Part shown: one piece after another, positions 1,289 through 29,191 of the stretch
Layout: each line of letters starts with the position of its first letter
How positions within the stretch are numbered: the stretch's first letter is position 1
Assembly (NCBI GenBank): GCA_001784615.1
Contig: MFRQ01000164.1
Location: 1-35,077, forward strand
Direction: 5' to 3'
Length of the DNA stretch: 35,077 nucleotides
Origin: Candidatus Melainabacteria bacterium RIFOXYA2_FULL_32_9
Lineage (GTDB): Bacteria; Cyanobacteriota; Vampirovibrionia; Gastranaerophilales; UBA9579
The notes under the pieces: generated by a model
What the model was told of the DNA's origin: nothing
Seen by the model: only the letters and a program-made list of their open reading frames with translations
Databases searched by the model: none
Position numbers and translations under genes: made by a program

Positions 1289-4200
1289 TTAGAAATTTTG
1301 ACCCGTTAAACTTTCTTTAATTCTGTTAATACAAGCTTTTTGGCTATAACTCCATTCTCTTGCCGTAATTCTTAATATTTTCCAGCCGCATCTTTCTAAA
1401 ATCGATTGTTTCCATATTTCTTTTGAGAAATCTTCCTGTCTGGAGTTTTCAGAAGGATTCAGAGATATTGATTCATTATAGCCACAACATTCAACAGCTA
1501 TAGAATCAAATTCATTAGAAATAACCAGATCAATATTAAATCCTGCTGACTCAAAGTTTGGAAGAACTTTGAATCCCTCTTCTCTACATAATTCTGCTAT
1601 TTCTTTTTCCATTGAATTATTATAGTTTTCCTGTATTAATTCAGGATTTATATTGGCATTTCGTTGATTTGATCTAATATATTCAACATAACTTCTTAAT
1701 AAACCTGCCGGAAGAGTTTCAGGCTCTTTTGAGATAAAGCATATCAGTTGTTTTCTTGCTCTTGTTATAGCTACGTTGAATAAATTTGGTTTTTGGACGA
1801 ATGTTAAACTCTGATGATGACTATTTGAAGCAAGTGTGAAAGATAAAAGAATGATATCTTTTTCATCTCCCTGAAATGTATGTGCCGTTCCTACTTCTAT
1901 CTGATGTTTTCTGACAATATCATCAGTAATTACCTGACTTATTGCTTTTTTAATCAGTTCAACCTGCCCTCTGAAAGGTGATATTATTCCAATTGAAGAC
2001 GGTTTTCTATTATTTTTTTCATCATTAATTATAATATCCTGAAGCGTTTCCATAATTTTCTCTGCTTCAGCCATATTTCTTGTATTATCAAGATCAACTT
2101 TAGCATCTTTTACTATGTGTAGCTCTATACAATCAGCAGGAGCTAATTCACGGTTCATAATCCTGATTCTGTTACCGTAAAATTCCTGATTACTGAAGTT
2201 GATTATTGGCGGACGACTTCTAAAATGTTCATCAAGCAATATTGGGTGTACTGAATAGAAATTAGCAAGATCAAATATTGAATTAGTCCTGAATCTCCAC
2301 ATTATTTGATATCTGTCAGGAATATTATATTTGCTTAAAAAAGACTGTTCTTTAGCTTTTTCAAGAAATGACAAATGAGAAAGCTGTTTATCATCACCAA
2401 CAATTACAGCACTTTTTGCCCTAAACATAACAGGGAAACAACTTGCAATATCACATTGTGAGGCTTCATCTATTATTGCAACATCAAATAGCCCCGGTTT
2501 TAAAGGTAAAGATTCTGATATTGCATAAGTAGTTACACCCCAACAAGGGAAAGCTTCAAGTAAAGGTCTGAAATCTTCATCCTGAAGGAGTCTGTTTTGA
2601 AGGTTTTTCTTTCTTTCAACAAGTGCTTTTGAATGAATATATAAAGTCTGTCTCTTAAATTGATCTCTAATTAAGGATTTTAAAGATTCTCTTCTTTGAT
2701 TTTTAAGAATATCCTTGGATAAAGATTTTTGCTTTTGCCTTAATTCTTTTAAATTATCTAAAAGTTGATGAATATTGCCTATTTTTCCTATAGATCCTTC
2801 AATGTTTTTTAAGCTTAAAGCCAGTTCTTTGGTTAATAAATTTAGTCGGAGTTGATCTATGGCTTTTAAAGAAGGCTCAATATCATTTAAATTGAGCTTC
2901 TTGCGTAGCTTATTAAAAGAGAACTTTGTAAGAATGGAATTTATTAACCCTGCTTTTTCTAAAGATTTTTCCAATTGATTTAAGAGGTTTTTATAGCTTT
3001 CTATTTCGGATTTAGTTAGCTCAGTCTTTATTACCCCTTCACTATCCGGATTTTCGATGTGTTTTTTATATTTTTGAAGAGCTTCATGCCAAATAGTTTC
3101 AAGTTCCAGTATTTTTTGACATTTATTTTCAAGATCAGCCTTTGTTTTATAAAGAGCTTTCATATCATCAGCGTTTGATAAAATTGATAACTCATAACCT
3201 GAATCCAGGTCTACTTTATTTGCAAGAAGATCCTGAAGCTGGAAGTTTAACTGTTTTTGATAATTTGCTCTGCCTGCTCTTAAACATAGAAATGGAGCTC
3301 CAAGATTGTTTAATCTTTCACTTACAACATCAACTGCTTTATCCATTCTGGAAGCAACCAGAACAGTCTTGCCTGATGCTACAAGATGAGAAACAAGGTT
3401 TACGATCGTTTGAGATTTACCTGTTCCAGGAGGTCCGCAGACTGAAACAACAGGATATTGTTTTGTTGCCTCTAAAACATCTTTCTGGCTATTACTTAGA
3501 TCTAATGGTGTTATAGGGTAAAAAGATTCTTCTTTTTTATTCTTTTTATTATCAAAAGCTATTCCTTGCTGAGTTTTTGCTTTTTTAGACTTACTAAATT
3601 CTTCCTGAATAATTGATAAAGCAGTTTCTCTATAAACACCAACAGGCATTTCTGCCATTTGGGTTAATTCATGAAGTAATCCGGCTGTTACAGTGGGCCT
3701 TTTGGTGAGAATAATTGCTGATTTATGTGAAACAGTCAATTTATCTGTAACATTCTCATCTATGTTAATATCAGGAATTATTGATTTTAATGTGGTAAGA
3801 AATATCTGAATTCCCTCATTGGTAAGAGGTAAATCAGGTACAACATCTATTAAACCCTCTAATAGGTGTTCTACTTTATCTTCATCATCATATTTTAGTA
3901 ATTCTGCTAAAGATCCTGTATTAAGAGAAAGTGTTTCGTCCGTTAATGTACAAGTAATACTTATACCATTTCTCTCAAGTTTGCATGGGACATAAAGAAG
4001 TGGAGTAAGAAATTCTTCACCTCTTTTTCTTTTAGTATTTTTACCTGTTAAAAAGAGGTGTCCATAGATTAAATAATGATCTTTCTGAGAGATTTCAGCC
4101 TGAACCATAAGTTCAGTAACTTCACTGCTTGCACCGTCAAGGGTTAAGAAAGATTCAGGATTGGTTAATAGTGTTTCCTCTCCTTCAACAAATATCCATT

Positions 4201-4342
4201 TATTATCTTTATCCTGATTTAAATTTCTGAAAGTAGAAGATTTTACTTCTTCTCTGACACAATCATGGAGATAAAGACATAATCTTTTTACAAAACTGTC
4301 TGTGAATGCTGATGAAAGTATTTTTGTTGCTTCTTGAAGCAT
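1289..4342 (-). CDS. Large SF1 helicase with C-terminal endonuclease-like domain
   Basis: 1017-residue superfamily 1 (Upf1/COG1112-like) DNA or RNA helicase. Walker A GPPGTGKS has its lysine at 309. Walker B is DEAS (D625, E626). Motif III-like GDDKQLSHL follows, then the C-terminal motifs GTAHTFQGDEKD and VAITRARKQ. About 310 residues separate Walker A and B, much of them charged and probably coiled coil (about 390-610). The last 100 residues (D938 in IDLVI, E951 in AVECCGY, then a predicted helix and ILRITAREW) resemble the DUF559/MTES_1575/Vsr group of PD-(D/E)XK nucleases. The N-terminal 270 residues are unassigned. It stands alone, convergent with the TPR gene. Such helicase-nuclease fusions are frequent in anti-phage loci, but housekeeping repair is also possible. 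Confidence 0.85.
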   Translation of the reverse strand: MLQEATKILSSAFTDSFVKRLCLYLHDCVREEVKSSTFRNLNQDKDNKWIFVEGEETLLTNPESFLTLDGASSEVTELMVQAEISQKDHYLIYGHLFLTGKNTKRKRGEEFLTPLLYVPCKLERNGISITCTLTDETLSLNTGSLAELLKYDDEDKVEHLLEGLIDVVPDLPLTNEGIQIFLTTLKSIIPDINIDENVTDKLTVSHKSAIILTKRPTVTAGLLHELTQMAEMPVGVYRETALSIIQEEFSKSKKAKTQQGIAFDNKKNKKEESFYPITPLDLSNSQKDVLEATKQYPVVSVCGPPGTGKSQTIVNLVSHLVASGKTVLVASRMDKAVDVVSERLNNLGAPFLCLRAGRANYQKQLNFQLQDLLANKVDLDSGYELSILSNADDMKALYKTKADLENKCQKILELETIWHEALQKYKKHIENPDSEGVIKTELTKSEIESYKNLLNQLEKSLEKAGLINSILTKFSFNKLRKKLNLNDIEPSLKAIDQLRLNLLTKELALSLKNIEGSIGKIGNIHQLLDNLKELRQKQKSLSKDILKNQRRESLKSLIRDQFKRQTLYIHSKALVERKKNLQNRLLQDEDFRPLLEAFPCWGVTTYAISESLPLKPGLFDVAIIDEASQCDIASCFPVMFRAKSAVIVGDDKQLSHLSFLEKAKEQSFLSKYNIPDRYQIMWRFRTNSIFDLANFYSVHPILLDEHFRSRPPIINFSNQEFYGNRIRIMNRELAPADCIELHIVKDAKVDLDNTRNMAEAEKIMETLQDIIINDEKNNRKPSSIGIISPFRGQVELIKKAISQVITDDIVRKHQIEVGTAHTFQGDEKDIILLSFTLASNSHHQSLTFVQKPNLFNVAITRARKQLICFISKEPETLPAGLLRSYVEYIRSNQRNANINPELIQENYNNSMEKEIAELCREEGFKVLPNFESAGFNIDLVISNEFDSIAVECCGYNESISLNPSENSRQEDFSKEIWKQSILERCGWKILRITAREWSYSQKACINRIKESLTGQNF

Positions 4343-4880: not shown

Positions 4881-5957
4881 ATGGCTGACGAAGATAAGCA
4901 GTTTGAGGCTACAGCACAGAAATTAAGAAAAGCCAGGAATGAAGGACAAGTTATTAAGAGTAAAGACCTGTCTACAGCTATTTCTTTGCTTGCAATGTTT
5001 ATGCTTCTTTACTATATGGCACCTTTTATTTGGGATCAGGTTGCAAGATTATTTATACTTCTTTATGAGCAAATTCCTAATAAAAGTATCGAAAATATTG
5101 GACTACAGTATCTGTATTTTTTAACTCTGGTACCGGCTGTATTAATAGTTTTGCCTATATTGTTTGCAGCTCTTTTAGTTGCAGTTTTAGGGGATCTTAT
5201 GCAAATAGGCCCCCTTATTACAGGTACTCCTTTAGTACCAAAACTCGATAAACTAAATCCTGTAAACGGATTTAAAAATATTTTTCTATCTGTAAAAACT
5301 CTTTTTGAGTTAGCTAAAAATATAGTAAAGGTTTTAATCCTTGGATTTATTGGCTTTTTGGTTTTTAAAGCACACATTCCTGCAATTTTAAATTTATGTG
5401 CTGTAGAAAATACATTCTCAATATTGCATGAATTTGGTAGAATGATAGTTGAATTCGTCCTTAAAGCAGGAATAATGTTCCTGGTCATAGCCGGGGCTGA
5501 CTATATGTTTACAAGATGGAAGTTCCTCAAAGACCAGAAAATGTCTTTTAAAGAGATAAAGGATGAATATAAAAATACGGAAGGGGACCCGCATGTAAAA
5601 GCAGCTTTAAGACAGAGGCGCATGCAAATGCTACAACAAACTATGCTTGAGGCTGTTGCAACTGCAGATTTTGTTACTGTAAATCCTGTTCATATTGCAG
5701 TTGCCCTAAAATACAATTCGGAAGAAATGCGTGCTCCAAAAGTAATTGCTAAGGGAACAGAGTTGTTTGCTAAAAAAATAATTAAAATAGCAAAAGAACA
5801 TAACATCCCTGTTGTAGAAAATCCACCGATAGCAAGAGCTTTATTCCGGCTTGTTGATATAAATAAAGAGATTCCGCCAGAATTATATAAAGCAGTGGCA
5901 GAAATTCTCATGTTCGTATATAATCTGCGTAAGAGATATGAAACCAGTACAACTTAA
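4881..5957 (+). CDS. flhB: Flagellar type III export switch protein FlhB
   Basis: 358 residues, the usual FlhB length. It is part of the inner-membrane export gate of the flagellar type III secretion system and switches export from rod/hook to filament substrates. The N-terminal half has four hydrophobic segments (about 33-58, 82-106, 147-165, 187-207), followed by the cytoplasmic linker with KDEYKNTEGDPHVK. The autocleavage site normally reads NPTH; here it is NPVH (residues 268-271), followed by the expected AVALKY. Asn and Pro, the cleavage residues, are kept. The sigma factor gene follows after 13 bases, so the two are probably co-transcribed. RBS is a modest AGAGAAAG. Confidence 0.95.
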   Translation: MADEDKQFEATAQKLRKARNEGQVIKSKDLSTAISLLAMFMLLYYMAPFIWDQVARLFILLYEQIPNKSIENIGLQYLYFLTLVPAVLIVLPILFAALLVAVLGDLMQIGPLITGTPLVPKLDKLNPVNGFKNIFLSVKTLFELAKNIVKVLILGFIGFLVFKAHIPAILNLCAVENTFSILHEFGRMIVEFVLKAGIMFLVIAGADYMFTRWKFLKDQKMSFKEIKDEYKNTEGDPHVKAALRQRRMQMLQQTMLEAVATADFVTVNPVHIAVALKYNSEEMRAPKVIAKGTELFAKKIIKIAKEHNIPVVENPPIARALFRLVDINKEIPPELYKAVAEILMFVYNLRKRYETSTT

Positions 5958-6991: not shown

Positions 6992-7543
6992 ATGTCAGAA
7001 AAAGTAAAGAGAGCAAAGATCATAGTTGGCGGAAGACATAAAATCCAAGAATTTATTGATAAAGAAAAGAATGCAAAAGTTAGAGATAGATTAAGAGCAA
7101 TATTATGGAGTAATAATCAAGTCTCAAATGAAGAAATATCAAGAAGATTAAACAAGAATAGAAATACTATAGCAAAATGGATAAGGAACTGGAATAAGTT
7201 CGAGTATAAAGGACTAGTAGACAAGCCCGTATCAGGAAGACCAAGGATATTAACAAAAGAAGAAGAAAAAGAAATCATTGAACAAATAAAAGGACAGCCG
7301 GAAGAGAATTATCAAGGCAGAATAACTTGTAAAATGCTATGTGCAAGGATAGAAGATAAATTAGGAAAACGATTAACCCCTGAAACACTTAGACATTACT
7401 TGAAAGAAAATGGATTATCCTGGAAAAAGTCTGGTATGTATGATTACCGAAGAAGCGATGAACACAGACAACGTTTCTTATGGAAATTGGAAGAAATTAA
7501 AAAAAAATCTCAAGGAAAACGAGTTAATATGGTTTATGGATGA
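6992..7543 (+). CDS. IS630 transposase, N-terminal frame (HTH domains)
   Basis: 183 residues as an unshifted product. Residues about 20-70 form a first helix-turn-helix (VSNEEISRRLNKNRNTIAKWIRNW is its core), then the GLVDKPVSGRPR linker typical of IS630, then a second winged HTH (about 85-150, LTPETLRHYLKENGLSWKKSG). It binds the element ends. The frame ends after a run of nine A (7499-7507), and the catalytic part continues in the frame one base ahead. The final KRVNMVYG tail is a by-product of not shifting. Confidence 0.85.
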   Translation: MSEKVKRAKIIVGGRHKIQEFIDKEKNAKVRDRLRAILWSNNQVSNEEISRRLNKNRNTIAKWIRNWNKFEYKGLVDKPVSGRPRILTKEEEKEIIEQIKGQPEENYQGRITCKMLCARIEDKLGKRLTPETLRHYLKENGLSWKKSGMYDYRRSDEHRQRFLWKLEEIKKKSQGKRVNMVYG

Positions 7544-8027
7544 AACAACAGTAACTCTTGAATCAGGTGTTTTATATGATTGGATGCAAACAAATACTCG
7601 AAGACTAATAAAAACTAATCGATCATATAAATGTGATTGCATAATAGGCGGTGTATCCCCTGATATAGGAGAAACTGTTTTTATTCAAACAGATAAAATA
7701 GATTCTCAAACCGTATCAATGTTTATACAGGAATTATCCGAGAATTATTCGGACTATGATAATATATTGATTCTTGATAATGCTTCTTTTCACGTTGCAC
7801 AAGGAACTCCAGACTTCCCTGTTCCTGAAAATATCAGATTGCTTTATCTCCCCACCTATTCACCAGATTTTAACCCTATTGAAAGATTATGGAAATATTT
7901 TAAAGATGAATTTATTAAAAACAGATTCTATGAAAATATTTATCACTTAAGAAATACGGTCAATGATGCTCTTTATAATCTTCTAAATAACCAGAATACA
8001 GTTAAATCTATTTGTTCCACTTATTAA
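7410..8027 (+). CDS. IS630 transposase, C-terminal frame (DDE catalytic domain)
   Basis: Catalytic RNase H-fold part (DDE_3). The first Asp is in WFMDETTV, the second in ILILDNASFH and the Glu in DFNPIERLWK, with 34 residues between second Asp and Glu (DD34E). Protein similarity to IS630 begins only near 7505, so the ATG at 7410 is unlikely to be used. The real product is probably a fusion of about 345 residues made by a +1 (or -2) shift, or by polymerase slippage on A9 at 7499-7507. If no slippage occurs the copy is inactive. Confidence 0.8.
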   Translation: MDYPGKSLVCMITEEAMNTDNVSYGNWKKLKKNLKENELIWFMDETTVTLESGVLYDWMQTNTRRLIKTNRSYKCDCIIGGVSPDIGETVFIQTDKIDSQTVSMFIQELSENYSDYDNILILDNASFHVAQGTPDFPVPENIRLLYLPTYSPDFNPIERLWKYFKDEFIKNRFYENIYHLRNTVNDALYNLLNNQNTVKSICSTY

Positions 8028-10353: not shown

Positions 10354-10387
10354 AAAAGAGACTCGTTATAAATAACGAGTCTCTTTT
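10354..10387. terminator. Bidirectional intrinsic terminator
   Basis: AAAAGAGACTCGTTAT and ATAACGAGTCTCTTTT are perfect inverse copies. The A-rich left and T-rich right sides let it work for lysS on the + strand and for the convergent exonuclease gene on the - strand. Confidence 0.85.
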
Positions 10388-10421: not shown

Positions 10422-12158
10422 TTATGCTTGTTTGTCTTGGTCTTCATTTTCTGTCATTATTTTGCGCACTATATCAATATCAGGAAGGTCATTGCCTTTT
10501 TCTTGATCTTTAAGCTTAACATTTTTCATCCAGATTCTTATAACTTGATTATTGCTATGATGAATTGACTTTTCAGCAATAATATCAAAGATTTCTTCTT
10601 TGGATTTACCATTATATCCTTCTATTCCAATTATATCGAGAACTTTCTTAAAGTTTCTAAGTAGTTTATATTTTTTATTTAAAGCCCAATGATTTTCTTC
10701 ATCAGTTAATTTTGCAACATTATCGGGTCCTATTTTAGAAGCTACCTCTGCAATAACATTTTTTTTGTAAGGATTCCTATTACTTGGTGTTGATATTACA
10801 TAGCCATCATGATAATTATTTACTCCCAGGTCTATTAGTTCATATGATAGGTCCTTATCCTTTTCTGCATTATAACCGCAAGTGTCTAGTTTAATATTTA
10901 AATCTTTAACTTTTCCTCCTAGTTGAAAAGTTAAGACATCTCTAATTGTCAGGTGTTTTTTAGGGTTTTCTTTGCTAGGTTTATAATGTTTATTGAGATA
11001 ATGGCAACAATACTTTAAAATATTTATTGTAGCTTTTGTATCTTCAAGAGCATCATGGGCTCCTTCTACGTCACGACCGAATAAAAACTTATGCTGTTCA
11101 TTTAAAGTCTTTTTGGAACCTAAATAAGGATGTATTCTCATAATTAAAATATAAGGATCAAGAGTAAGATAAATTTTTCTATTACTGATTTTATCTTGAT
11201 GCTTTCTGTTATATTCGCTTATTTCATTATTTATCATCCCTATATCAAATTTAGCGTTATAAGCAACAAGTAAATTGCCATCCATATATTTTTTTGTGTA
11301 TTCCGGTAAAACTTTATTCATAATAGGCTCATTTTTTAGCATATCATTTGTAATATGGTGAACCTTTGTTGCTTCTTCCGGTATTTCAACTTCAGGATTG
11401 ATTAATTGATTAATAACACCATCAGGTCTGATTTTCTCATCAGGGTCAACTTTTACTATTCCCATTTGTATAATTTTATCTACAGGTCCTTTTTTAGGAT
11501 ATATATTAGTTCCGGTTGTTTCGGTATCAAAAGCTATAAATCCAAAATTTAATTTTCCGGTTTCTGGATTTATAACAGGCTGGTTTAGAGTTTTTAGTAT
11601 TTCGGAATCATCTTCATCAATTACGTTTTTTCTTAATGCTTTTAAATCGTCAGAAAAATTAGATAGTTTTAATAATTCTAAATTTGTGAAAAATATTTTT
11701 ATACCTTCTTGGCTTGCTAGAGCACGCTGTACAGCTAGATGAGCTGGAACATTGGTAGGATTAAATCTGTTTGGCCAATCATTTTCCTTTATTTCAGCTA
11801 ATGCTAAAGCATACCAGAATGTCATGATTTCAGAATCATTAGCTGTTTTCCAATCAATAGGTTCTTGTTTTAAGTTGTTCCAGCCAACTTTAGACCAATC
11901 AATAAAGTTTTTATCTAAAAGTCCTTTTCCTTGATACTTTTTGTTTACTGATTTGATGATATCTTCTATTTTATTATGGTCAGTATTTCCTAGAAAAGCT
12001 AATTGATGATAATTGTTTCTAAAAGGTATGTGCCAGGGTTCCTGGTTTTGTATTGATTTTGAGGGAACATTAGAGCAATCAATCTTTTTTGTAGAATTGA
12101 CATTTTTTATAGGATTAATATTTTGTGTATTATGAGGAATTTTATTTTGTACAAGCAT
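10422..12158 (-). CDS. DEDDh 3'-5' exonuclease-domain protein with unknown flanks
   Basis: 578 residues. The middle (about 203-390) is a DnaQ-like DEDDh exonuclease with all metal ligands: D211 and E213 in FDTETTG, D305 in YNAKFD, H368 and D373 in HDALEDT. It should degrade DNA or RNA 3' to 5'. The N-terminal 200 residues, starting with a polar low-complexity stretch and LAFLGN (53-58), and the C-terminal 185 residues are unassigned. It is three times the size of a normal DNA polymerase III epsilon exonuclease domain and has no polymerase-binding tail, so it is not an obvious replication subunit. It starts 20 bases after the PLD gene, with AAAGGAT as RBS, and is clearly co-transcribed. No signal peptide. 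Confidence 0.85.
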   Translation of the reverse strand: MLVQNKIPHNTQNINPIKNVNSTKKIDCSNVPSKSIQNQEPWHIPFRNNYHQLAFLGNTDHNKIEDIIKSVNKKYQGKGLLDKNFIDWSKVGWNNLKQEPIDWKTANDSEIMTFWYALALAEIKENDWPNRFNPTNVPAHLAVQRALASQEGIKIFFTNLELLKLSNFSDDLKALRKNVIDEDDSEILKTLNQPVINPETGKLNFGFIAFDTETTGTNIYPKKGPVDKIIQMGIVKVDPDEKIRPDGVINQLINPEVEIPEEATKVHHITNDMLKNEPIMNKVLPEYTKKYMDGNLLVAYNAKFDIGMINNEISEYNRKHQDKISNRKIYLTLDPYILIMRIHPYLGSKKTLNEQHKFLFGRDVEGAHDALEDTKATINILKYCCHYLNKHYKPSKENPKKHLTIRDVLTFQLGGKVKDLNIKLDTCGYNAEKDKDLSYELIDLGVNNYHDGYVISTPSNRNPYKKNVIAEVASKIGPDNVAKLTDEENHWALNKKYKLLRNFKKVLDIIGIEGYNGKSKEEIFDIIAEKSIHHSNNQVIRIWMKNVKLKDQEKGNDLPDIDIVRKIMTENEDQDKQA

Positions 12159-12178
12159 TTGTTTATCCTTTAAAAAAT

Positions 12179-14221
12179 TTATGCCATTAAATTAAGAGTG
12201 TTATTATTTTTAGGTAAATTGATAATATTATTACCTTTAAAACTTAAATCAGACTGGGTTTTAGTTTGCACATTAGCGCCATATCCATCAGGTATTGAAG
12301 GTTCACTGTAATCCCAATCTTTTTTGAATTGGTTTAAGAAGGTTGAAGTTATTTTAGGGTTGTCTATCACAACGCTGCATTCATGATTACCACGTTTATA
12401 ACGCCCTTTCCTTCTCTCTATGATGTTAATAAGATCATAATACTCTATAAGTTTATTCATAACAGCTTTTGTAGCTTTTGTTAGTGTGATTTTCTTTCCT
12501 TCTATCGTAAATTTTGATGTTTCCTCATCTGAATTAGAGTTCTTTTTTATGTGCACTAACATTTTTTTTCTATGTTTTAACTTATTCATGTCTGCTTTTT
12601 TATCTTTATTAAAGATAGATTTTAATGATAATTGCTCTTCAAGAACATTGATAGCGGGTTTATACTGATATATTTGAGTGTCTATCTTTTTATCAGATAA
12701 AGGATAATCATTTCTTTTACCTGTTCCTAAATTACTTTCCAAGCCAGTCATAGACCAATTTGCAGAACCAATTAATAATTCCTTATCATCAAATACAGCC
12801 CATTTAGAATGCATTCTTTGTTCGATCTCCTCGTTAACTTGATACATTCTTAAAGGAACACCGGCTTCATATAAAGCCTTTATTGCATTTTGACAGTAAG
12901 GAAATTCTTCAGGGATTCCAGAATATAGAATAATATGAGCATCAAAAGGCCTTCCACCTTTTTGAGCTTCTTTATGACGACTTATAATTTTTTCAACAAT
13001 CTCAGGATGTGACAAAACAAACAATTCAGCCTTTAACGATTTAGCTGAGTCAAGCTTTTCTTTTACATAATTACCTATAGATTCAGAACCTTCTGCTCCA
13101 ATTTCTGAATATTCTCTGGGTGAAGTAGTTAAAATCTTAATTGCAGGGTTTTCAATAGGTTTTACTTCCGGTAAATCCAGTTTTCCATCACGATATCTGT
13201 TTTGACATTCAGGAGAACCATATAATTCTTTAACAAGTTTTGAATATTTAACAGATTCAGGATGTATTACCTTACGTATCCCACCATAATTTTTTTGTTC
13301 TTCTTTCGTAACAGGGCCATTTACAGGGTTTGAATCGCCTATTTTTTTCCAAGCAAAAGCCCAGTCTTTATTAAATATCTCTGAAATTATATTATCTACT
13401 TCTGAATGTTTATATTTTGGTAGTGTTTCAATAAGTACACAAGCATCATGGTTTGCGGGAGAATGATTACCCCAGTTCATGCCACCTATAATAACTTTTC
13501 TGCCACCAACGGCAATGAGCTTATCGTGTTGAAGTTTTGAACCACCTTGGTGAGACATTGGAGCTGGCACAGCATCAATATTATTGTCTCTTAAGTGTTC
13601 TATCATTTTCTGATTATTATAATGTCTGAGAGGTTTACCCTTAGAATCTTCATACCATTTATGATCATCTAAAATTACTTGGATTTTTAAATTAGGATTC
13701 CCTTTTTTCTTTTTAACAAGCAAATCAAGAATTTCTTGTTGCTTTTTCCAACCGGCAACAGTTTCTGCACCATTAGATGCCCATATATCACCGTCAATCT
13801 TTAAATTCTGGAATTCAAACATTTTTATTTGTATATCATCATTATTACGGGCATTTTTAATAAGATTTATAGTTTCATCGAAAATTTGCTTAGAACCAAT
13901 GAGTGTGGTAACTTTTGTATTTCCAACAATTGCAGAAACGCTTGGTTCAGGAGATATTCCAGATATTCTTAAAACTTTTTTTAGATAATCCCCTATATTT
14001 ACACCTCTTTTATTTGCTCTTTCTATAATTTCTGTCCCCACATCAAAAGGAACAGGTATATTTACTGTTCTTTGTCCACTTGGATGTGGATATAAAATTT
14101 TTGGTAAGGGGGATTCTTTGTCTTTGTTCTTTGATGAAGAAGTGAATGGAATTGCTTTCCCAATCCCTCTGTGAAATCTATTGATGTTTTCATTAGTTTT
14201 ATAGGATAACTCCATTATCAT
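12179..14221 (-). CDS. Phospholipase D-fold protein with two HKD motifs
   Basis: 680 residues. Two PLD half-domains: HDKLIAVG (H232, K234) followed by GGMNWGNHS, and HSKWAVFD (H471, K473, D478) followed by GSANWSMTG. The first motif has Gly where the Asp normally stands (239). The family includes cardiolipin synthases, phospholipases and nucleases such as Nuc. There is no membrane segment or Sec signal, which argues against a cardiolipin synthase. A ribbon-helix-helix-like stretch (about 55-90, NIPVPFDVGTEIIERANKRG) and a basic C-terminal region (about 575-640) suggest nucleic acid contact, by inference. IPFTSS (24-29) and LSFKGN near the C-terminus recall a motif in its neighbours. First gene of a two-gene operon, RBS GGGAG. 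Confidence 0.85.
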   Translation of the reverse strand: MIMELSYKTNENINRFHRGIGKAIPFTSSSKNKDKESPLPKILYPHPSGQRTVNIPVPFDVGTEIIERANKRGVNIGDYLKKVLRISGISPEPSVSAIVGNTKVTTLIGSKQIFDETINLIKNARNNDDIQIKMFEFQNLKIDGDIWASNGAETVAGWKKQQEILDLLVKKKKGNPNLKIQVILDDHKWYEDSKGKPLRHYNNQKMIEHLRDNNIDAVPAPMSHQGGSKLQHDKLIAVGGRKVIIGGMNWGNHSPANHDACVLIETLPKYKHSEVDNIISEIFNKDWAFAWKKIGDSNPVNGPVTKEEQKNYGGIRKVIHPESVKYSKLVKELYGSPECQNRYRDGKLDLPEVKPIENPAIKILTTSPREYSEIGAEGSESIGNYVKEKLDSAKSLKAELFVLSHPEIVEKIISRHKEAQKGGRPFDAHIILYSGIPEEFPYCQNAIKALYEAGVPLRMYQVNEEIEQRMHSKWAVFDDKELLIGSANWSMTGLESNLGTGKRNDYPLSDKKIDTQIYQYKPAINVLEEQLSLKSIFNKDKKADMNKLKHRKKMLVHIKKNSNSDEETSKFTIEGKKITLTKATKAVMNKLIEYYDLINIIERRKGRYKRGNHECSVVIDNPKITSTFLNQFKKDWDYSEPSIPDGYGANVQTKTQSDLSFKGNNIINLPKNNNTLNLMA

Positions 14222-19541: not shown

Positions 19542-20592
19542 TGTACATGTTACATAATTCGCTGATGGTTAAAATAGAAAAGTAGCGAGAAAGAGGTTAT
19601 GTAACGTGCAAAAAAGTGACAATTTAATTTCAAAAACTTTGGCAAGAAAAATGCTTTCTTGCGTAGAAGAATATGAATTAATCAAACAAGGTAAAAATAA
19701 CAGGTTTAAAACTGTGCAGGATTTCTGCAAATATAACCGGTTTTCAAGGCAAAATTTTCTTAAAATATATAGAAGATACCAGAATGAAGGAACTCTGGAA
19801 TCTCTATTACCTCAGAAAAGAGGTCCAAAGTATAAAACAAGAAGAACAGATATCAAGATTGAAAACGAAATAATCATTCTAAGGCAAAAAGGTAATAACC
19901 GCTATGAGATTCATGAAGTACTAAAAAAAGAATTAAGAGAATTTGCTCCATCTCCTTCTAGCATTTACAATATCTGTAAAAGATATGGTCTAAATAAACT
20001 TAAAAAACAGCAAAAACAAGAAAGACGAAAAATAATTATGCAAAGGGCTGGAGAATTAGCACATATAGATTGTCATTATCTAAGTAAAGGTATAACAATA
20101 AAAGATTATCCTAAGCTTTATCTTGTTGCTATTGTAGATGGTTATTCCAGGATTGCCTGGGTTGAGGTAATTGAAGATATTAAATCACTTACTGTAATGT
20201 TCAGTGTTTTAAGATGTATTAATATGATAACTAACAGGTATAAAATACACTTTGAAACAGTAATGACAGATAATGGTGCTGAGTTCGGTTCAGGTAAAGA
20301 TGCAGATAATAAAATGGATCATCCATTTGAGAGAATGCTCTATGAAATGGGAATTAAACATAAATATACTAAACCTTACAGGCCTCAAACTAATGGTAAA
20401 GTAGAAAGATTCTGGAAAACTATAAATGAAGATATGATTGAAGATGCTTGTTATGAAGATATTGAAGATCTTAGAAACGAGCTTCTAGAATACTTGATTT
20501 ATTACAATGAACATCGTCCTCATCAAGGTTTAGATGGAAAAATGCCAATTGATTTTATACCTAAATCGTAATCGAATTACTTGACATGTACA
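19542..20592 (+). mobile_element. IS481-like insertion sequence, complete
   Basis: 1051 bp. Ends TGTACATGTTACATAATTCG (19542-19561) and the inverse of 20573-20592 match at 17 of 20 bases. Directly flanking both ends is ATTGC (19537-19541 and 20593-20597), a 5-bp target duplication. Both flanks belong to a dispersed repeat. Confidence 0.88.
19606..20571 (+). CDS. IS481-like transposase (rve integrase core)
   Basis: 321 residues. N-terminal HTH segments (about 35-70 and 85-135) lead to an integrase core: Asp in AHIDCHYL, Asp in VMTDNGAEF, Glu in TNGKVERFWK. The second Asp to Glu distance is 44 residues rather than the common 35, because of an insert GSGKDADNKMDHP. The C-terminal YYNEHRPHQGLDGKMP is typical. 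GTG start, with AAAGAGG upstream. The frame is intact, so the element may be active. Confidence 0.9.
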   Translation: MQKSDNLISKTLARKMLSCVEEYELIKQGKNNRFKTVQDFCKYNRFSRQNFLKIYRRYQNEGTLESLLPQKRGPKYKTRRTDIKIENEIIILRQKGNNRYEIHEVLKKELREFAPSPSSIYNICKRYGLNKLKKQQKQERRKIIMQRAGELAHIDCHYLSKGITIKDYPKLYLVAIVDGYSRIAWVEVIEDIKSLTVMFSVLRCINMITNRYKIHFETVMTDNGAEFGSGKDADNKMDHPFERMLYEMGIKHKYTKPYRPQTNGKVERFWKTINEDMIEDACYEDIEDLRNELLEYLIYYNEHRPHQGLDGKMPIDFIPKS

Positions 20593-28396: not shown

Positions 28397-29191
28397 ATGA
28401 TAACTGCAATTAAGTCCAATTTAGCAGGTTTTTCAACTAATAATAAGCAACCACAAAAGGATTTACACGCTAAATTATCTTTAATATCCTCTGATATTGG
28501 AGATAGAATAAGCTTTACAAGTAGTAAAAAACCAAAGATAGATGATATAAAGTTCTTAAGCACTAAGGATGCTGAAATTTATGCTAAAAATGAGCTTGGA
28601 ATTGATGCTGATTTTAAAGATAGCTTAATTCTTGCTAATTTGGCTGTAAATGCCTTAAAAGATGTCAAAAAAGCAGGTTATAAACTTCCACAAAAAGTTA
28701 TTTCTGACTATGAAAAATTTAAAAATTATAAGAAAACAACTATAAAAGGTAAAACTCTAGAAATAACAGCTGCTATAACGTATCCTGATAATGGTGGAAT
28801 AATATATCTTAATTCAAAATTTGATTGGAATAATGTTAATAAAAGAATGAAAAAGAATTTTACAAAACATTTATTATCTTCAAATAAACCAAAACATATT
28901 TTTTACCATGAAATAGGACATTTTTTGCATTATGTAGCAGATAAAAATATGTATAACAAAACAAACAATGTTGAAATTTCACTAAAAACTAGAAAATTGA
29001 TAAAAAATAAGGTTGGGGAATATGCTTCACAAGATTTTGGTGAGTTTATAGCGGAATTATTTGCTGCAAAATTTATAGGCAGAAAATATTCAGATAAAAT
29101 ACAAAATCTATATAGGATATGGAATGGACCACATCCAAATATGAAATACAAAAATTATGGTTCTAGAACGATAAATATTGAAGTGAAGTAA
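28397..29191 (+). CDS. Putative zincin metalloprotease (HEIGH), no signal peptide
   Basis: 264 residues. Zinc motif HEIGHFLHYVAD near 172-183 and a likely third ligand Glu in DFGEFIAELFAAKF, a gluzincin-type arrangement about 40-45 residues later. It is not of the HExxHxxGxxH class seen at 20862-21542, so the two are unrelated. The N-terminus is polar with ISFTSS at 38-43 and has no Sec signal. Substrate unknown. It follows mlaD after 147 bases with its own AAAGG and may be separately expressed. Confidence 0.75.
   Translation: MITAIKSNLAGFSTNNKQPQKDLHAKLSLISSDIGDRISFTSSKKPKIDDIKFLSTKDAEIYAKNELGIDADFKDSLILANLAVNALKDVKKAGYKLPQKVISDYEKFKNYKKTTIKGKTLEITAAITYPDNGGIIYLNSKFDWNNVNKRMKKNFTKHLLSSNKPKHIFYHEIGHFLHYVADKNMYNKTNNVEISLKTRKLIKNKVGEYASQDFGEFIAELFAAKFIGRKYSDKIQNLYRIWNGPHPNMKYKNYGSRTINIEVK

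What the first reader, a model, noticed from the sequence alone, without database searches (positions are those of the whole stretch)
10422..14221. Two-gene operon: phospholipase-D-fold protein plus DEDDh exonuclease, both with large unknown regions
The genes are 20 bases apart on the same strand, each with its own RBS and with a shared terminator at 10354-10387. One has two HKD motifs (the first lacking its Asp), the other a full DEDDh site. Neither has a signal peptide, membrane helix or partner from known repair or replication operons. Two nuclease-type folds in one operon suggest a joint role on nucleic acid: defence, programmed damage, or exported effectors. That role is inference; the pairing and motifs are seen.
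Basis: partly seen in the sequence, partly recalled or inferred. Interest (0 to 1): 0.65.

Follow-up and report, generated by a model that had tools for sequence, protein, structure and literature searches.

The report
Paired DNA-cutting enzymes sharing a leader
In non-photosynthetic relatives of cyanobacteria (Gastranaerophilales), two DNA-cutting enzymes are always encoded side by side, move between genome sites as one unit, often travel with a third enzyme of a DNA-building-block-destroying family, and all three begin with the same unexplained address-like tag, so this looks like a new, probably exported, DNA-destroying kit.

Summary
In detail: PLD gene 12179-14221(-) and DEDDh gene 10422-12158(-), 20 bases apart. 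The pairing is real. Of 383 whole genomes of the order, 34 have the PLD protein and all 34 have the exonuclease beside it; 33 of 33 named Gastranaerophilales loci agree; full-length exonuclease relatives were found nowhere else. The PLD protein groups with nucleases (NucT, Nuc, DrmC), not cardiolipin synthases. Near-identical pairs sit in unrelated places, sharing only promoter to exonuclease end, so the pair moves as a cassette. Best reading (confidence 0.42): a co-targeted, probably exported DNA-degradation set. Main rival (0.3): intracellular anti-phage defence with dNTP depletion. No activity or localisation was shown; leader function is inference. New variant of a known kind.

The parts
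12179..14221 (-). PLD-fold nuclease, 680 aa, two HKD lobes
   Evidence: PF13091 E=6e-26; closest solved relatives by sequence NucT, mitochondrial cardiolipin hydrolase, Nuc; AlphaFold mean pLDDT 83, two-lobe PLD fold
14117..14221 (-). N-terminal leader of the PLD protein (residues 1-35, disordered), motif IPFTS with F26
   Evidence: F26 aligned in all Gastranaerophilales relatives; pLDDT<50 over 1-35
13973..14068 (-). possible ribbon-helix-helix-like segment (residues 52-83)
   Evidence: two predicted helices 59-71 and 76-83; no Pfam hit, so inference only
13481..13528 (-). HKD motif 1 region (H232, K234, then GGMNW; Asp replaced by Gly here)
   Evidence: alignment A3
12755..12811 (-). HKD motif 2 region (H471, K473, D478, GSANW)
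   Evidence: alignment A3; PF00614
10422..12158 (-). DEDDh 3'-5' exonuclease-domain protein, 578 aa
   Evidence: PF00929 E=1.5e-25 over residues 208-381; fold matches DnaQ, RNase T, ExoI domain
11982..12158 (-). N-terminal leader of the exonuclease (residues 1-59, disordered), motif LAFLG with F55-x-G57
   Evidence: F55 and G57 nearly invariant; pLDDT<50 over 1-59
11016..11537 (-). DEDDh exonuclease domain, residues 208-381
10354..10387 (.). perfect hairpin between convergent exo and lysS-like genes, likely terminator
   Evidence: sequence; -21.3 kcal/mol, z -7.4

Best explanation
A lineage-specific DNA-degradation cassette. Shown by computation: a PLD-family protein with both catalytic lobes and a DEDDh exonuclease-domain protein are encoded as an obligate pair, co-evolve, move together as a promoter-to-stop unit, and in most genomes travel with a dGTPase-family protein; all three share a disordered N-terminal leader with an h-x-F-x-[GAS] motif. 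Inferred: the PLD enzyme opens or trims DNA, the DEDDh enzyme degrades it from 3' ends, and the dNTP hydrolase removes the pool needed for repair and replication. Inferred and less sure: the leader takes all three out of the cytoplasm (perhaps through the flagellar/type-III-type export apparatus these genomes carry), so the target is the DNA of another cell or extracellular DNA used as food.
For: Obligate pairing (34 of 34 genomes; 33 of 33 loci). Distance matrices of the two proteins correlate, r=0.97. L056 and L057 share only the pair, 3812 bp at 96.8%. dGTPase-family partner beside 22 of 33 pairs and in 27 of 35 pair genomes against 1 of 348 others (Fisher P=3e-33), even where it is unlinked (G087, G129, G206, G221). 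PLD sequence nearest to nucleases. Leader motif in all three families, in the solo PLD proteins of Vampirovibrionales, and enriched in the first 75 residues in G000 (22 seen, 6 expected, P=8e-7) and G075 (14 seen, 4 expected, P=4e-5). Leaders are rich in N/P/Q/S/T and poor in D/E. Leader-bearing dGTPase-family and PGI-like proteins are extra copies beside leaderless housekeeping ones. FlhB in 34 of 34 genomes tested. No enrichment of defence genes near the pair.
Against: No experiment shows what the leader does; it could be a sorting tag inside the cell. No conserved immunity gene is seen, which exported nucleases aimed at bacteria usually need. FlhB occurs in all genomes tested, with or without the pair, so it does not discriminate. 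The dGTPase-family partner is missing in 8 pair genomes, including the window's own. Catalytic activity of every enzyme is untested, and HKD1 lacks its Asp in the window.
Confidence: 0.42

Rival explanations
1. Intracellular anti-phage defence or abortive-infection module: the PLD and DEDDh nucleases attack invading or host DNA and the dNTP hydrolase starves phage replication.
For: Patchy spread within the order (35 of 383 genomes), cassette-like relocation, nucleases plus a dNTPase-family protein (known anti-phage chemistry, from general knowledge). The PLD second lobe resembles DISARM DrmC. A Hhe/ProA-like helicase-nuclease gene lies about 6 kb from the exonuclease gene in the window.
Against: Neighbours of 33 pairs show no more defence-model hits than random genes of the order. 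No sensor or ATPase partner. No PLD hit in viral contigs or plasmids. The shared leader is unexplained by this reading.
Confidence: 0.3
2. Accessory DNA repair or nucleotide-scavenging enzymes acting in the cytoplasm or periplasm, with no antagonistic role.
For: DEDDh and PLD nucleases and dNTP hydrolases all have housekeeping relatives; some leader-bearing proteins look metabolic (alpha-amylase, PGI-like, HAD/S6PP).
Against: Patchy and mobile, unlike core repair genes; leaderless housekeeping Dgt, DnaQ-type and PGI copies are also present.
Confidence: 0.2
3. PLD protein as a lipid enzyme (cardiolipin-synthase-like) that happens to sit beside a DnaQ-type exonuclease.
For: The overall PLD fold also matches phospholipases and phosphatidylserine synthase; no lipid assay was done.
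Against: Sequence nearest to NucT, Nuc and DrmC; ClsB scores only 18.9 bits (E=6e-4) against a cut-off of 281. Obligate pairing with an exonuclease.
Confidence: 0.05

Closest known systems
Nuclease NucT / Nuc (PLD-family endonucleases)
   Same: HKD active site of the nucleolytic PLD branch; best matches among NCBIfam equivalogs and PDB sequences
   Different: These are about 160-180-aa single-HKD proteins; this protein has two HKD lobes in one chain, a leader, an N-terminal helical segment and a lobe-2 insertion
DISARM DrmC
   Same: PLD-type nuclease with a similar HKD2 and GSANW segment
   Different: Far below the DrmC cut-off (30.9 of 133 bits); no other DISARM genes found beside the pair in the window
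PLD3/PLD4 lysosomal 5' exonucleases
   Same: Two-lobe PLD monomer fold acting on nucleic acid
   Different: About 9-13% identity; eukaryotic, secretory-pathway proteins
DnaQ/epsilon, RNase T and ExoI DEDDh exonucleases
   Same: DEDDh domain with all catalytic residues
   Different: Extra helical N-terminal and C-terminal domains with no Pfam match; leader; obligate PLD partner
dGTPase-type dNTP triphosphohydrolases
   Same: HD and HD_assoc domains; PDB Dgt relatives
   Different: Forms a separate high-scoring group, mostly with the leader, restricted almost entirely to pair genomes

Membership tests
PLD superfamily, nucleolytic branch | two HxKx4D...GSxN motifs | tested here: met
   H, K and N invariant in both motifs of 29 aligned sequences; HKD1 Asp lost in the window and a few others
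Cardiolipin synthase | score above the ClsB equivalog cut-off | tested here: not met
   18.9 of 281 bits; other cardiolipin synthase models did not appear in the hit list
DISARM | DrmC above cut-off | tested here: not met
   30.9 of 133 bits
DISARM | drmA/drmB and methyltransferase genes beside it | tested here: inconclusive
   none among the window genes scanned with Pfam and no DISARM model among hits of 99 neighbours, but not every flanking gene was scanned
DEDDh exonuclease | DEDDh catalytic residues in an RNase_T domain | tested here: met
   PF00929 E=1.5e-25; D211, E213, D305, H368, D373 invariant
dNTP triphosphohydrolase (third partner) | HD and HD_assoc domains with H...HD...D metal ligands | tested here: met
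   PF01966 and PF13286 in the members scanned; H132, H161, D162, D268 invariant
Known defence-system component | located among defence genes | tested here: not met
   defence-model hits not raised among 99 neighbours versus 99 control genes
Exported effector | translocation by a secretion system | not testable with these tools
   only a leader resembling an uncleaved, disordered export signal is seen

The most novel reading that the evidence does not exclude
A class-wide, undescribed N-terminal targeting signal (disordered, N/P/Q/S/T-rich, ending in h-x-F-x-[GAS]) in Vampirovibrionia marks a set of exported proteins, and the PLD-DEDDh-dNTPase cassette is a mobile DNA-destroying weapon or feeding kit delivered through it.
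Probability: 0.3. Interest if true: 0.82.

Novelty: new variant of a known kind. Interest (0 to 1): 0.6.

Why it matters
Gastranaerophilales are common gut and aquatic bacteria with little known about how they act on other cells. If the leader is an export signal, one motif would open a whole candidate secretome of this class, including its algal predator Vampirovibrio, to direct test. If instead the set is defensive, it is an undescribed combination of nucleases with a dNTP hydrolase. Either way, genomes from 14 of the 52 genera sampled in the order carry an obligate enzyme pair that I found in none of the family libraries or defence models searched.

Tried and rejected
Defence-island idea: tested with 99 neighbours versus 99 control genes, not supported. 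Cardiolipin synthase: rejected by scores. Phage or plasmid origin: no PLD relative in IMG/VR or plasmids; exo hits in viral contigs and phages are DnaQ-domain only. Type III apparatus as a marker of pair genomes: FlhB is in all 34 genomes tested, so not informative. Mobility mechanism: I looked for terminal repeats, target duplication or an empty site around the relocated pair in G087 and found none that was clear; left-flank homology stops about 70 bp before the cassette. Plain k-mer enrichment of N-termini gave no clean motif until the pattern was specified, so the enrichment P values come from patterns chosen after seeing the three families. The literature search found no paper joining PLD, DEDDh and defence system, and none apparent on an N-terminal signal in this class; subscription papers are not covered.

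Full report
WHAT IS THERE. The hairpin at 10354-10387 folds at -21.3 kcal/mol and lies between the exonuclease and a convergent lysS-like gene. The window is a whole contig of a 2.46-Mb genome. Its order is Candidatus Gastranaerophilales: order-mates found by the genome search have contigs identical in length to named records, e.g. G075:C6 and CALVAR010000006.1, both 91,344 bases.

PAIRING. In 97 relatives, nine besides the window's genome have the PLD protein and each has the exonuclease next to it; in one of these (G027) both genes are broken into pieces. In 383 genomes of the order, profile searches find the PLD protein in 34 and the exonuclease in 35; the coordinates show the two side by side in all 34, and the 35th (G320) has the exonuclease starting at base 4 of its contig. 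In a named collection, 33 of 33 Gastranaerophilales loci carry the exonuclease directly downstream on the same strand. Five Vampirovibrionales loci and one Armatimonadetes locus have a shorter PLD relative with no exonuclease in the DNA held around them (29% identity to the V. chlorellavorus protein). Distance matrices of the two proteins correlate at r=0.97, though shared species history contributes to this.

CASSETTE. G087 and G081 carry pairs 96.8% identical over 3812 bp, from about 75 bp before the PLD ORF to the end of the exonuclease ORF, and nothing else in the two 20-kb stretches aligns. Other loci show similar limits. The upstream part holds a conserved GTAACAAACT...CATAAT block, a probable promoter. 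No terminal repeat or clean empty site was found, so how the unit moves is unknown.

THIRD PARTNER. Clustering of neighbours showed one recurrent extra family, in 22 of 33 loci, mostly divergent from the PLD gene. It has HD and HD_assoc domains and its closest solved relatives are dGTP triphosphohydrolases. Across 383 genomes I split the hits by score: 28 genomes hold the high-scoring group and 27 of these hold the pair (G320 counted as a pair genome), against 8 pair genomes without it; Fisher P=3e-33. Related species are not independent, so this P value overstates the evidence; but in G087, G129, G206 and G221 the gene is on another contig and still present. The window's genome has only a leaderless housekeeping-type Dgt, next to a primase (dnaG)-like reading frame.

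LEADER. In the AlphaFold models residues 1-35 of the PLD protein and 1-59 of the exonuclease are disordered. The leaders vary in sequence, but a Phe followed at +2 by Gly, Ala or Ser is kept in nearly all members: IPFTS, ISFAA, ITFGA in the PLD family; PSFKG, LAFLG, ISFKG in the exonuclease family; ISFKG, VSFKA, IAFTG in the dGTPase-family partner. The solo PLD proteins of Vampirovibrionales also have such a motif. For one pattern written from these families, the first 75 residues of proteins hold 22 matches in G000 where 6 are expected, and 14 in G075 where 4 are expected. These patterns were chosen after seeing the families, and the gene starts are my own mechanical calls. Carriers include ankyrin-repeat proteins, a HAD/S6PP phosphatase, an alpha-amylase, a PGI-like and a SelO-like protein. 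Leaderless housekeeping PGI and Dgt copies sit elsewhere in genomes of the order. Leaders are rich in N, P, Q, S and T and poor in D and E. This resembles uncleaved type III export signals (general knowledge), and FlhB is present in all 34 genomes tested, but since that includes genomes without the pair it does not tie the leader to that apparatus. Flagellar genes in this group, and a proposed T4SS-delivered enzyme set in Vampirovibrio, are described in PMC3787301 and PMC4451040.

WHAT THE ENZYMES ARE. The PLD protein's nearest relatives by sequence are NucT, mitochondrial cardiolipin hydrolase and Nuc; NCBIfam ranks NucT and DrmC above ClsB, all far below their cut-offs. Its fold is the two-lobe PLD monomer, with many phospholipases and PLD3/4 among the matches. 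Fold alone does not settle the substrate. The exonuclease domain matches DnaQ, RNase T and ExoI; its other domains have no Pfam match.

DEFENCE TEST. 99 neighbours of the pairs (three genes on either side, one per cluster) gave 6 defence models matched at E<=1e-15; 99 control genes drawn at random from G075 and G000 gave 17. Thus no defence-island signal, although the window itself has a Hhe/ProA-like helicase-nuclease at 1289-4342.

INFERENCE. An obligate nuclease pair plus a dNTP hydrolase, moved together and bearing one leader, is best read as a set that destroys DNA and its precursors in one place. I favour a place outside the cytoplasm because of the leader and the leaderless housekeeping copies, at 0.42; intracellular defence stays at 0.3. 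The segment PLD 52-83 looks ribbon-helix-helix-like to me, but no tool called it.

Noticed in passing
window 1289-4342 (-): 1017-aa SF1 helicase with MTES_1575 nuclease domain; matches Hhe, ProA, PDC-S37 and Mko defence models, below the NCBIfam cut-offs.
   Followed up: partly
window 6992-8027 (+) and 19606-20571 (+): Transposase in two overlapping frames (HTH part and DDE_3 part) and an integrase-core (rve) transposase on either side of the region.
   Followed up: no
window 28397-29191 (+): 264-aa protein without Pfam match carrying the same leader motif (RISFTSSKKPK).
   Followed up: partly
L331-L333 and hits: The dGTPase-like family has a second, lower-scoring group (about 470-534 bits) in roughly 65 genomes, most without the pair; its start appears leaderless in the three loci read.
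   Followed up: partly
L056:12129-12425 and about 12460-12510: GIY-YIG-like ORF and short dispersed repeats directly downstream of the relocated pair in G087; the repeat occurs many times in G075.
   Followed up: no
G027:C151 (L063, L097): Pair broken into four ORFs, with masked bases read as X in L063.
   Followed up: no
L284:11658-14432, L287:11909-13375, L233:9503-11332 and others: Unrelated proteins, including ankyrin-repeat ones, carry the N-terminal h-x-F-x-[GAS] leader.
   Followed up: partly
34 genomes: FlhB present in every genome tested, usually in two copies, one of them in the window at 4881-5957.
   Followed up: no
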